Source: Herpetosiphon geysericola (GTDB taxonomy: Bacteria; Chloroflexota; Chloroflexia; Chloroflexales; Herpetosiphonaceae). From it: DNA of 64,000 bases. The stretch is taken from positions 124,001 through 188,000 of the forward strand of contig NZ_LGKP01000025.1 of the NCBI RefSeq assembly GCF_001306135.1. Direction: 5' to 3'. Made by a program: the position numbers and the translations under genes. Shown here piece after piece: positions 23,846 through 27,792 of this stretch. The stretch's first letter is position 1; each line of letters opens with the position of its first letter. Under the pieces are notes generated by a model. That model saw only the letters and a program-made list of their open reading frames with translations. It had not been told where the DNA came from and searched no databases.

Positions 23846-24391
23846 TCAAGCCTCGTTAAGCTGTTGGCGAATGTGCAGCAGATACTTGGTGAGCCAATCG
23901 TGTTCAGCCCGAATCATGGTTTCACTATAATCAAACAGGCCTTGGATATGCCAAACTTCGGTTGGCGCTTCGGCGCGGCGTTGCTGCACCAGCTCAATTT
24001 GGGCCCGTAATTCAGCGCAATAGTGCTCTAAGGCTTTGATAATATCGTTGAGATCAAGCAATGGAAAATTGGCCATGGCTAAGAGCAACGATGAATAGCG
24101 TTGTTGGGGCACACTCAACATTGCTTGCAAACTCTCTTGCAATGCAGCCCTGCCACTTGGTAGAATGTTATAGACCATCCGTGAAGGCCGCCCATCGCCT
24201 TGCGAGGTTTCGCCCGCCACCAATTGGGCTTGCTCAAGCTTTTTGAGCAAATAATAAATCGACGAAAACGCTATTTCCGTCCATAAGCGCATCCCCCGCG
24301 CCTGAATAATTTGTTCGAGCTCATAGCCATAGCGTGGCTGCTCTGCCAACAAGCTTAAAATTGCCGCTTCAGCCTGAGTCAACTTTTTCAT
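23846..24391 (-). CDS. PadR-family transcriptional regulator
   Basis: 181 aa. The N-terminal winged helix is typical of PadR (ILSLLAEQPRYGYELEQII, then FSSIYYLLKKLEQAQLV and GRPSRMVYNILPSGRAAL). The C-terminal helical part (about residues 95-180) is the dimerisation region of PadR subfamily 1 proteins. PadR proteins usually repress their own gene and a neighbouring efflux or detoxification gene. Here the only obvious target is its own promoter, which has a strong palindrome between promoter and start codon. The next minus-strand gene upstream is the broken aldo/keto reductase. Confidence 0.88.
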   Translation of the reverse strand: MKKLTQAEAAILSLLAEQPRYGYELEQIIQARGMRLWTEIAFSSIYYLLKKLEQAQLVAGETSQGDGRPSRMVYNILPSGRAALQESLQAMLSVPQQRYSSLLLAMANFPLLDLNDIIKALEHYCAELRAQIELVQQRRAEAPTEVWHIQGLFDYSETMIRAEHDWLTKYLLHIRQQLNEA

Positions 24392-24725: not shown

Positions 24726-25144
24726 TTAGCGTTGCACAATGCTATCGATTTGCTGCATTTGGCTGGCGGTTAATGGGCCAAATTGCAATGCTTTGGCGTT
24801 TTCGCTCGCTTGGGCTACGGTGCGGAAGCCTGGAATTGGCAAGGTTTGGCTGCTACGACCCCATAACCATGCCAACGCGCCTTGGGTTAGGCTGCGGCCT
24901 TCGCTGGTGAGCACTTCGCGCAAGGCTTCGAGCTTTTTGAGCCATTCTGGGTTAGGTTTGCCGGCCTGAAAACCTTCGAACCACTCAACTTTGCTGCGCA
25001 CATCGTCGCTGCTAAAGCTGGTGCTTGGGGTAAATTTGCCAGTCAACAAGCCCATGGCCAATGGTGCACGATTGATGCTGGCCAAATTGTGGGCTTCGCA
25101 AAAAGCAATAATCGCATCGCTCTCGCCAGTGCTATGGCCATGTA
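24726..25144 (-). pseudogene. Aldo/keto reductase, 3' part, cut off by the TnpB element
   Basis: In frame it encodes HGHSTGESDAIIAFCEAHNL and continues with LASINRAPLAMGLLTGKF and a normal AKR C-terminus (GALAWLWGRSSQTLPIPGFRTVAQASENAKAL). It lacks the N-terminal barrel, which lies at 27219-27792. Joining the two parts without the element gives 993 bp, that is 330 codons plus stop, with the frame kept through the junction (QLN-LLHGHST). AKRs of this type reduce carbonyls with NADPH. The fragment has no ribosome site of its own and is not expected to be functional. Confidence 0.88.
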
Positions 25145-25240
25145 GTGAACTACCACGCCCACGAGGGGCGTGGCTTCTGCCTTCAACGACGGTTACCAGC
25201 ATTTCGCTGGGTTTACACCATCTCCAGCAGCGTTTTGGCT
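25145..25240 (-). ncRNA. Probable omega-RNA (reRNA) scaffold at the right end of the TnpB element
   Basis: In IS605-type elements the RNA guide of TnpB is made from the 3' end of tnpB and the right end. Here the region has two hairpins: CCAGC and GCTGG at 25196-25210, over the tnpB stop codon, and CCACGCCC and GGGCGTGG at 25153-25173. The guide would continue past 25145 into the reductase, reading TACATGGCCATAGCACTGGC. The 5' limit is arbitrary. Confidence 0.55.
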
Positions 25241-26350
25241 TTCCGTCGTCCCAACGGCAAGCAGGCGTATTCCTTCATGCACGATGTTAATCGCAGCATT
25301 GACATCGCGATCATGAGTCATGCCACAGGTGGGACATGTCCACACCCGATCCGCCAGCGTCAAGGTCGTTTTGGTTTTGCAGTGATGGCAGGTCTTTGAT
25401 GAGGCGTAGAACCGCCCAACCTTAACAACCCGTCGTCCATGCCATTCTGTCTTATCCATTAAAATCTGCATGAAGGTACTGAGGGCGGCATCGCTGAATG
25501 ATTTGGCCAGCTTGGTTTTCGCAAGGCCTTTGATATTCAGATCTTCGATGCACACCACATCGAATTGTCGAACGATCCCTAACACATGCTTATGCAGCCA
25601 ATCGGCGCGTTGGTTACTGATTTTCTTATGAAGTCGGGCAACGCGCTTCTTTGCTTTCAGGCGGTTGTTACTACCCTTTTGGGCGCGTGAGAGTTTCCGC
25701 TGAGCGCGGGCAAGGTTCTTCTGGCTGCGGCGGTAGAACTTCGGTGGTGCGGTCTTCTCCCCCGTTGACAGCGTGGTGAAGGATTCAAGCCCCACATCAA
25801 TGCCCACAGGCCGATCAGCCGTTGGTTGCACATCAGGGCGGTCAATGTGGCAGACAAACACCACCCACCATGCGCCTGTGGCATCCTGTTTGATCGTTGT
25901 GCTTTTGGTCACACCCATCACTGGTCGATGAATGATCGCTCGCATCAGCCCGATTTTCGGCACGCTGATCGTGCATTCATCGATTACCGTCGCGCCTTGC
26001 GGGAAGCGGAGGCTGTGTGGCGTGATTTTGCGTGCTTTGAAGCGCGGGTATTTGGCGCGTTTGGCGAAAAAGTTGCTGAAAGCGGTTTCCAAATCCATCA
26101 GCGCTTGTTGCAAGGGTTGCGAATGGCAATCACGCAAAAAGGCCATTTTGGGTTGACGTTTCAGATCAACCAACATCGCCGCAAGCCGTTGATAGCTCAG
26201 CCGTTGACCCGTTGCTTGATAGTGCGATTGCTTGCAATGCAACGCCCAATTCCAGACAAAGCGTCGGCTGCCAGCCCACTGGACCAAGGTTTCGACTTGG
26301 GCAGGCGTGGGTTGCAGACGATATTTGTAACAACGGGTCAGCGTTCGCAT
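25193..26350 (-). CDS. tnpB: TnpB RNA-guided endonuclease
   Basis: 385 aa, full length. The N-terminal helix-turn-helix-like part starts MRTLTRCYKYRLQPT. The RuvC residues are all present: Asp185 (VGIDVGLES), Glu269 (VVCIEDLNIKGL) and Asp349 (DRDVNAA). The zinc finger has Cys321, 324, 339 and 342 (TCHHCK and WTCPTCG). TnpB is the ancestor of Cas12 and cuts DNA at empty donor sites next to a target-adjacent motif, which helps the element persist. With all catalytic residues intact it is more likely an active nuclease than a nuclease-dead TldR-type regulator. No tnpA accompanies it. Confidence 0.93.
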   Translation of the reverse strand: MRTLTRCYKYRLQPTPAQVETLVQWAGSRRFVWNWALHCKQSHYQATGQRLSYQRLAAMLVDLKRQPKMAFLRDCHSQPLQQALMDLETAFSNFFAKRAKYPRFKARKITPHSLRFPQGATVIDECTISVPKIGLMRAIIHRPVMGVTKSTTIKQDATGAWWVVFVCHIDRPDVQPTADRPVGIDVGLESFTTLSTGEKTAPPKFYRRSQKNLARAQRKLSRAQKGSNNRLKAKKRVARLHKKISNQRADWLHKHVLGIVRQFDVVCIEDLNIKGLAKTKLAKSFSDAALSTFMQILMDKTEWHGRRVVKVGRFYASSKTCHHCKTKTTLTLADRVWTCPTCGMTHDRDVNAAINIVHEGIRLLAVGTTESQNAAGDGVNPAKCW

Positions 26351-26693
26351 GATCAGGCTTCCTTTTGATAGGCGCTATCCATGGCAATGGTTTGGGCGGA
26401 AACCGTTCCCGCCGAACCGACAACGGGTATCCGTCACCCATCTGTCCAAAGCCCACGACCCCAAAAATGGCGGTGCAGAGAGAAACACATGAACATGAAT
26501 GATTGGACATCACTTCTTTTGGGAGTTATTGAAAGCTCGTAACAATTAATAACAAATCAACTTTTATATGCTTATTATATATCTTTTGTATCTTTATATC
26601 AATACTATATAACCTATATTTCAATACAATATTAACTATAATCCCAAAGACTGCTATAGTAGCGTCGGTATTGACTTAAGCGAGGATCTTGTT
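26351..26693. other. AT-rich gap inside the TnpB element
   Basis: The part 26530-26650 is strongly AT-rich (long A/T runs with TATATA-like steps), unlike the flanking chromosome. It separates divergent tnpB and XRE genes and must contain both promoters. I see no gene in it. Confidence 0.6.
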
Positions 26694-26939
26694 ATGGCTG
26701 TTCGCAGTCGATTAAAAGTGCTTATTGCACAGTACAATGTGAAGAGGTTAAAAGCCAACCAGCCAACCCTAACCCTACGTCGGCTTGCAGAAGAAACAGG
26801 TTTGGCATTATCAACCATAAATGGGCTTACTACGCCGAGGGCGAGTCGAGTGGACTTCAAAACGCTCAACGCATTGTGTGAGTATTTCGACGTACAACCA
26901 GGGGAGATATTGGAATACCTTAAGGATAATATGGCATGA
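26694..26939 (+). CDS. Small XRE/Cro-type HTH regulator carried by the element
   Basis: 81 aa, ATG with GAGGA about 10 nt upstream. It is a single HTH domain: TLRRLAEETGLALSTINGL for the HTH and FKTLNALCEYFDVQPGEILEYL for the last helices, as in small Cro/CI proteins. It lies inside the insertion, divergent from tnpB, across an AT-rich gap, and has its own terminator (27007-27037). Control of tnpB is a reasonable guess but not shown. Such cargo is not standard in TnpB-only elements. Confidence 0.85.
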   Translation: MAVRSRLKVLIAQYNVKRLKANQPTLTLRRLAEETGLALSTINGLTTPRASRVDFKTLNALCEYFDVQPGEILEYLKDNMA

Positions 26940-27006
26940 AAATGCCTCTGCATGGTTATGCGCAACCAGAGGCGCGGCTCCACCAAACCAAGGAAGGCAG
27001 AGCGAC

Positions 27007-27037
27007 GGTCATTATACCCGATAATGGCCGATTTTTT
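27007..27037 (+). terminator. Terminator after the XRE gene
   Basis: GGTCATTAT and ATAATGGCC form a 9-bp stem (one G-T pair) with a 5-nt loop, followed by a run of six T. Another hairpin (GCCTCT and AGAGGC, 26944-26973) lies directly after the stop codon. Confidence 0.8.
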
Positions 27038-27218
27038 GACTGTATGGGATAGCGTCTGTGGTACGCAGCCAAAATAACCGCACCTAATTGCTATTCACAA
27101 GAGAGCCTGCTATTGCGCTCTTTAAACTGCTCTTCGTCAGAACTGGCACGCATGCATCGCATCCTGCGCGGGGAACCCACACCGTGGGTCTTGGGGCGGG
27201 GTGTTCTGCGGCAAGCCT

Positions 27219-27792
27219 ATAAATTCAATTGCTGCTGCACAGCGATACAATTTGGGCCTTCGGCAAAAAGCTGAATCGCCTCAAGCCGATCTGTGCTCCA
27301 GCAATAGCCGCGAATTTTGCCCTCGCTCACGAGGTTTTCGAGCGTATCTCGGACTGCGGTAGCATCCTCAATCGGGTAGCCCCACAAGTGAAATTGCAAT
27401 AAGTCGACATAATCGGTATTAAGCTGTTTGAGGCTTGCTTCAAGTTGGCGGCGAATTTCGGCGGGGCTAATGGGAATTTGCTCAAAGGCATCGTTGCCGC
27501 CCTCGGCCCAGCTATTGCCAAACTTGGTTGCCAGAACAAGCTGATCGCGGCGGCCTGCAATTGCTTGGGCGATCACTTTCTCGCTGTGGCCACAGCCATA
27601 AACGTTTGCTGTGTCGAGAAAATTAACCCCCAGTTCAAGCGCTGCATGAATTGCTCGAATCGATTCTGCATCGTCAACTTGGCCCCAGCCAGAAGGATTG
27701 CCATTGTGGTTGAAGGGGCCGCCGATTGCCCAACAGCCCAAGCCCAAGGCGCTCACTTCGATGCCACTTTTGCCGATAGTTCGCTTTAACAT
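27219..27792 (-). pseudogene. Aldo/keto reductase, 5' part, interrupted by the TnpB element
   Basis: It starts at ATG 27792 with AGGAG 8 nt upstream. It has the AKR N-terminus (GLGCWAIGG), the catalytic Asp and Tyr in FLDTANVYG, Lys in LATKFG and the active-site His in LLQFHLWG. It runs to CIAVQQQLNL and then hits a stop codon (27217-27219) supplied by the first bases of the inserted element. A truncated protein of 191 aa could be made, but it would lack the rest of the barrel and the NADPH-binding C-terminal part. The rest of the gene is at 24726-25144. Confidence 0.9.

What the first reader, a model, noticed from the sequence alone, without database searches (positions are those of the whole stretch)
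24726..27792. TnpB element splits an aldo/keto reductase and leaves an in-frame, intact empty site
Both halves of one reductase flank the insertion. Removing exactly 25145-27218 (2,074 bp) gives 993 bp = 330 codons plus stop, with the frame kept through the junction and no missing or extra base. This fixes the element ends: TTTAT target on the left, TAGTTCAC end after a hairpin on the right. The guide would be TACATGGCCATAGCACTGGC, next to a TTTAT-like target motif, so the system is fully specified by sequence alone. The insertion is probably recent, as the host gene shows no other decay.
Basis: partly seen in the sequence, partly recalled or inferred. Interest (0 to 1): 0.8.

Follow-up and report, generated by a model that had tools for sequence, protein, structure and literature searches.

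The report
TnpB element with swappable repressor cassette
A small jumping gene carrying an RNA-guided DNA cutter (TnpB) has cleanly split a reductase gene in a Herpetosiphon bacterium, and it and its sister copies carry interchangeable repressor-like genes beside the cutter, as if phage-style on/off switches were being traded between elements.

Summary
Removing 25145-27218 restores a 330-codon aldo/keto reductase, and all five same-genus relatives held have that gene uninterrupted at the homologous junction. About 18 further copies share the ends TTTAT|AGnnnnGCCGCAGAAC...GTAGTTCAC|. It is an IS200/IS605-type TnpB element in Herpetosiphon (Chloroflexota); TnpB is intact and closest to ISDra2 TnpB, and only a 3' remnant of tnpA is left. 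That part is a new member of a known kind.

Sister copies carry one of eight HTH types at this same place (HTH_26 types 12-33% identical in protein; one type of another family), while ends and tnpB stay about 84-88% identical in DNA. Cassette type does not follow the tnpB tree; two copies in one genome share an identical cassette but have diverged tnpB. HTH genes are under purifying selection. Similar HTH genes open integrase-bearing, prophage-like elements in these genomes.

Best explanation: a captured, exchangeable repressor-promoter module controls tnpB. Repression is inferred; no operator was demonstrated.

The parts
27219..27792 (-). 5' part of the split aldo/keto reductase (574 bp)
   Evidence: PF00248, E=3.6e-35; joins in frame with 24726-25144
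27219..27223 (-). TTTAT: insertion target and predicted TAM
   Evidence: TTTAT in 15 of 17 left flanks of related copies
26971..27218 (-). Conserved left end, starting AGGCTTGCCGCAGAACACC
   Evidence: 77-87% identical in sister copies
27006..27036 (+). Terminator-like hairpin plus T run behind the HTH gene, inside the left end
   Evidence: pattern match only (number found not above shuffles), but the hairpin arms recur in the left-end alignment
26694..26939 (+). Cro/C1-type HTH gene, 81 aa, class F; proposed repressor
   Evidence: PF13443 HTH_26, E=6.1e-14
26632..26660 (+). Promoter-like site facing the HTH gene (TTAACT-17-TATAGT, TG before -10)
   Evidence: 9 of 12 matches; consensus match only
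26574..26602 (-). Promoter-like site facing tnpB (TTGATA-17-TATAAT)
   Evidence: 11 of 12 matches; reached in 1% of shuffles of the cassette region
26353..26473 (-). 3' remnant of tnpA in front of tnpB
   Evidence: alignment to full-length copies and shared tnpA tail
25193..26350 (-). tnpB, 385 aa, RuvC motifs GIDVG, CIEDLN, DRDVN and zinc finger present
   Evidence: NF040570 335 bits against cut-off 100; ISDra2 TnpB 8h1j/8bf8 E about 6e-68
25153..25173 (-). Right-end hairpin CCACGCCCCTCGTGGGCGTGG; the last about 75 nt of the element are the predicted omega-RNA 3' part
   Evidence: near invariant in 18 copies, 9-pair stem
25145..25152 (-). Right tip TAGTTCAC
   Evidence: invariant in 18 copies
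25125..25144 (-). Predicted guide, TACATGGCCATAGCACTGGC
   Evidence: position next to the right end; by analogy with ISDra2 (PMC8612924)
24726..25144 (-). 3' part of the split reductase (419 bp)
   Evidence: PF00248, E=1.1e-21

Best explanation
A recent insertion, 3' of a TTTAT target, of an IS200/IS605-family element that has lost tnpA but keeps an intact TnpB and its right-end omega-RNA; it must have moved with a Y1 transposase supplied in trans, or before tnpA was lost. TnpB, guided by about 20 host bases next to the right end, would cut any chromosome copy from which the element has been excised and so have it copied back. Between left end and tnpB the element carries a divergent Cro/C1-type HTH gene and two opposed promoters. 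I propose that this HTH protein is an autorepressor of the promoter of tnpB (and of tnpA in full-length copies), and that repressor plus promoter form a cassette, taken from prophage-like integrative elements, that is exchanged between IS copies much as phages exchange immunity regions. Shown: insertion, ends, empty site, intact TnpB frame, position of and selection on the HTH genes, exchange of the cassette as a unit. Inferred: nuclease activity, movement in trans, repression, direction of capture.
For: Insertion and ends. TnpB. HTH gene divergent to tnpB at the same place in nearly all sister copies, eight classes. Promoter toward tnpB 11-12 of 12 in classes B, C, D, F. Cassette 100% identical in L050 and L053 while tnpB dS is 0.59. 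Class not clustered on the tnpB tree. Purifying selection on HTH genes, dN/dS 0.07-0.34. Replacement caught half-way in L006/L046. HTH_26 gene divergent to a YLNGE-type ORF, next to a tyrosine integrase, in L132 and L133; same ORF at 75% identity in the prophage-like L157.
Against: No operator found: palindromes in the promoter regions are no better than in shuffles. Promoters of classes A, G and H are not above shuffles. Two copies (L049, L054) have lost the HTH gene but keep tnpB. Retention of the HTH gene in tnpA-deleted copies is also expected from neutral deletion. No cassette identical in DNA to a prophage copy was found. The tnpB tree is poorly supported.
Confidence: 0.6

Rival explanations
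1. An ordinary tnpB-only IS605 element in which the HTH genes are passengers: the stretch between the ends is free to gain and lose DNA, and the HTH protein regulates only itself, not tnpB.
For: Variable middle with other passengers, such as an HNH gene; no operator signal; HTH lost in L049 and L054.
Against: Always the same gene type, place and orientation, divergent to tnpB, with the promoter toward tnpB inside the exchanged unit; purifying selection.
Confidence: 0.27
2. The HTH protein is an activator, or an antitoxin-like or host-directed regulator carried as cargo, which helps the element persist by an effect unrelated to tnpB control.
For: HTH proteins alone do not tell repressor from activator; the closest class-F relatives lie on other plasmid-like contigs, beside toxin-antitoxin-like genes.
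Against: No partner toxin or effector in the element; no PADLOC match for the HTH protein.
Confidence: 0.1
3. The HTH classes are one gene that stayed in the element and diverged fast, with no exchange.
For: Seven of eight classes belong to one Pfam family, HTH_26.
Against: Class C is HTH_17; genes are conserved within classes; identical cassettes in copies with diverged tnpB; no link with the tnpB tree.
Confidence: 0.03

Closest known systems
ISDra2 of Deinococcus radiodurans (IS200/IS605 family; PMC8612924)
   Same: TnpB family (nearest solved natural relative), insertion 3' of a pentanucleotide that doubles as TAM, guide next to the right end, hairpin at the right end, no target duplication.
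   Different: TTTAT instead of TTGAT; tnpA reduced to a remnant; an HTH cassette divergent to tnpB, which ISDra2 (overlapping tnpA and tnpB between its ends) does not have.
IS1341-type elements (tnpB without tnpA)
   Same: tnpB between IS605-like ends without a functional tnpA.
   Different: Here the tnpA loss is recent (remnant in place, full-length sisters exist), and the HTH cassette is extra. IS1341 features are recalled from general knowledge and PMC9956272, not tested in depth.
Phage immunity region (repressor gene with divergent early promoter, exchanged between phages)
   Same: Small Cro/C1-type HTH gene divergent to a promoter, exchanged as a unit between otherwise similar elements.
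   Different: Carried by a 2-3.5 kb insertion sequence and placed before tnpA/tnpB; repression and class-specific immunity untested.
TldR, TnpB-derived RNA-guided repressors (PMC13418256)
   Same: TnpB lineage joined to transcription control.
   Different: Here TnpB keeps its RuvC residues and the regulator is a separate HTH protein.

Membership tests
IS200/IS605-family TnpB element | TnpB with RuvC and zinc-finger motifs | tested here: met
IS200/IS605-family TnpB element | Insertion 3' of a fixed short target without target duplication or terminal inverted repeats | tested here: met
   empty site in five relatives, TTTAT in 15 of 17 flanks
IS200/IS605-family TnpB element | Subterminal hairpins; conserved right end as source of the omega-RNA | tested here: met
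   right-end hairpin near invariant in 18 copies; the RNA itself not observed
IS200/IS605-family TnpB element | Y1 transposase TnpA in the element (autonomous members) | tested here: not met
   only a 3' remnant here; an intact frame exists in sister copy L046
IS200/IS605-family TnpB element | RNA-guided, TAM-dependent cleavage | not testable with these tools
   needs a plasmid-interference test
Phage-type immunity module | Cro/C1-type HTH gene divergent to a regulated promoter | tested here: met
   regulation itself not shown
Phage-type immunity module | Operators next to the promoter recognised by the cognate repressor | tested here: inconclusive
   no palindrome above shuffles
Phage-type immunity module | Exchange of repressor plus promoter between related elements | tested here: met
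TldR | Loss of RuvC catalytic residues | tested here: not met
   motifs intact in the alignment

The most novel reading that the evidence does not exclude
An IS family in which expression of the RNA-guided nuclease (and of the transposase) is under copy-specific, exchangeable phage-type repressor/operator modules, so that copies fall into immunity classes: a copy entering a cell without its repressor switches on TnpB, while a copy of the same class is silenced.
Probability: 0.35. Interest if true: 0.78.

Novelty: new variant of a known kind. Interest (0 to 1): 0.55.

Why it matters
How TnpB nucleases, which can cut the chromosome of their host, are kept in check is little known. A family of closely related TnpB elements that swaps whole repressor-promoter cassettes would make control of TnpB and of IS copy number directly testable, and would show insertion sequences borrowing the logic of phage immunity. 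The split reductase with five intact relatives also gives a clean natural target for testing TTTAT-dependent, guide-directed cleavage of an empty site.

Tried and rejected
Open frame after excision as proof of the ends: rejected, many neighbouring cut pairs keep the frame; relatives settle it. Host origin of the first six bases AGGCTT (absent in copy C43): rejected, since AGnnnn-like hexamers recur in the other copies and would put a stop (TTA TAG) into the reductase. Retention of the HTH gene in tnpA-deleted copies as evidence of function: dropped, a rough estimate shows neutral deletion would spare it about as often. Operator search by palindromes: no signal. Rfam for the omega-RNA or left end: nothing. 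Covariation in the right end: too conserved to tell. HTH association outside the genus: one case, in another genus of the family, among 40 more distant tnpB loci. PADLOC matches to Cas12f reflect common TnpB/Cas12 descent. Papers: no report of an HTH or repressor cassette in TnpB elements in the library searched; absence there is not proof.

Full report
What is there. On the minus strand the window holds, in order, the 5' part of an aldo/keto reductase (27792-27219), an insertion (27218-25145) and the 3' part of the same reductase (25144-24726). Both parts match PF00248. Cutting out exactly 25145-27218 gives 993 bp and 330 codons without an internal stop. Frame alone is weak evidence, since many neighbouring cut pairs stay open, so I looked for the empty site.

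Empty site. Five same-genus genomes each hold one full-length uninterrupted copy, 92-95% identical in protein. The joined sequence aligns to four of them without a gap at 85-92% in DNA, and to G002 with two gap openings away from the junction. At the junction two relatives read AATTTAT|TGCATGG and three have TTTAC or TTTGT. In our genome the site before insertion was TTTAT|TACATGG. The reductase shows no decay (dN/dS 0.047-0.063 against relatives, 0.02-0.05 between intact copies), so the insertion is recent relative to the split of these species. The genus is Herpetosiphon: contigs of the same length are named H. aurantiacus DSM 785 (G001), H. giganteus (G003) and H. llansteffanensis (G005).

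Ends. The own genome holds two more related elements and the five relatives about sixteen. Left ends read TTTAT, six variable bases mostly beginning AG, then GCCGCAGAACACC, with TTTAT in 15 of 17 flanks. Right ends read GGCGTGGTAGTTCAC. One copy (C43) lacks the six bases after TTTAT. The guide would be TACATGGCCATAGCACTGGC; no intact TTTAT+guide site is left in the genome.

The nuclease. TnpB (25193-26350) is intact and over the NCBIfam cut-off for RNA-guided TnpB. Its nearest solved natural relative is ISDra2 TnpB; the RuvC motifs GIDVG, CIEDLN and DRDVN and the zinc-finger cysteines are present. By the model for ISDra2 (PMC8612924), TnpB cuts the donor joint left by excision, where TAM and right-flank guide target are brought together, and repair from the sister copy restores the element. 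In this copy tnpA survives only as a 3' remnant in front of tnpB, and the only Y1 gene found in the genome contains a stop, so movement must have been in trans or before tnpA was lost.

At 26694-26939, on the other strand, lies an 81-aa Cro/C1-type HTH gene (HTH_26, E=6.1e-14). A promoter-like site faces tnpB (26602-26574, TTGATA-17-TATAAT, 11 of 12) and another faces the HTH gene (26632-26660); a terminator-like hairpin follows the HTH gene inside the left end. Nearly every other copy has a small HTH gene at the same place and in the same orientation, but of different types. I distinguish classes A to H, seven of HTH_26 and one (C) of HTH_17. The HTH_26 classes within the genus are 12-33% identical in amino acids, although ends and tnpB of the same copies are mostly 77-88% identical in DNA. 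The left border of the exchanged stretch lies just beyond the HTH stop codon; the right border lies past the promoter, at the YLNGELIGY-type ORF, at tnpA or at the tnpB ribosome-binding site. Two copies, L049 and L054, have no HTH gene.

Exchange as a unit. L050 and L053, two copies in one genome, have a cassette 98-100% identical over about 400 bp, with the HTH genes identical, while most of their tnpB is far less alike (tnpB dS 0.59). On a tnpB tree of 19 copies the class labels are not clustered: 12 changes, shuffled mean 11.1, all 200 shuffles as low. That tree is star-like with little support, so recombination inside tnpB is likely too. In L006 and L046 an HNH gene plus a class-E HTH gene lies inside the start of an older class-D HTH gene, apparently a replacement caught half-way. 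HTH genes are under purifying selection within classes (dN/dS 0.07-0.34), as is tnpB (0.12-0.20).

Where the cassettes may come from. Full-length copies (L045, L046, C44 of this genome) read: left end, HTH (reverse), a YLNGELIGY-type ORF, tnpA, tnpB, right end. An HTH_26 gene divergent to a YLNGE-type ORF also opens integrative elements with a tyrosine integrase (L132, L133), and L157 and L133 carry phage-type genes such as an endolysin. The ORF of L157 is 75% identical to that of the IS, although no HTH gene was listed beside it in L157. A cassette identical in DNA to a prophage copy was not found, so capture and its direction are inferred.

How it most likely works. The cassette promoter transcribes tnpB and its omega-RNA; the HTH protein binds between the two promoters and holds this down. 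Exchange of the whole cassette keeps repressor and operator matched and gives copies different specificities. Repression is the untested step: palindromes in the promoter regions are no better than in shuffles, and retention of the HTH gene in tnpA-deleted copies is also expected by neutral deletion. The rival that the HTH genes are passengers remains open at about one in four.

Comparison and verdict. As an element this is a new member of the IS200/IS605 TnpB kind, and its guide and TAM follow the known rules. The exchangeable regulator cassette is, as far as the searched papers go, not described for TnpB elements. It appears limited to the family of Herpetosiphon: one case in another genus (L076) among 40 more distant tnpB loci examined in the order. 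I therefore rate it a new variant of a known kind.

Noticed in passing
L006 about 780-830 (G000:C43, near 156803): The second copy in this genome sits on the last codons of a substrate-binding-protein-like gene: GAA TAA becomes GAG TGA, so the protein sequence is unchanged by the insertion.
   Followed up: partly
L006 and L046, middle region: An HNH_3 endonuclease gene travels with the class-E HTH cassette and lies inside the start of an older class-D HTH gene; it may drive the exchange.
   Followed up: partly
L058 about 990-1032 (G005:C11:136.9 kb): A scar of about 45 bp, left tip fused to right tip, lies in G005 at the same site as the C44 copy of this genome: an internal deletion that removed all genes.
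   Followed up: partly
L132 10-17 kb, L133 11-19 kb, L157 4-12 kb: Integrative, prophage-like elements with tyrosine integrase and endolysin; L133 has a tandem run of at least four small HTH genes in front of its early operon.
   Followed up: partly
L006, L045, L046, L007; chromosomal loci L138-L151: A protein family without Pfam match (motif DFALYLNGELIGY) found in the IS, in the integrative elements and as a gene at apparently stable places in the order; function unknown.
   Followed up: partly
window 26533-26565 (-) and the leaders of other cassettes: Leader hairpins with variable stems and a similar loop (about GCTACGAAC, here GTTACGAGC) lie between promoter and first gene in several classes.
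   Followed up: no
window 27217-27221 (-): The element's first bases AG turn TTTAT|AG into a TAG stop in the reductase frame, so the 5' part ends within two codons of the junction.
   Followed up: yes
L044 about 1150-1225 (G003:C8) and window 23846-24391: A class-A copy in H. giganteus lies directly behind a gene whose end (HDWLTKYLLHIRQQLNEA) equals that of the PadR-like gene next to the split reductase here, although the reductase lies 40 kb away there.
   Followed up: no
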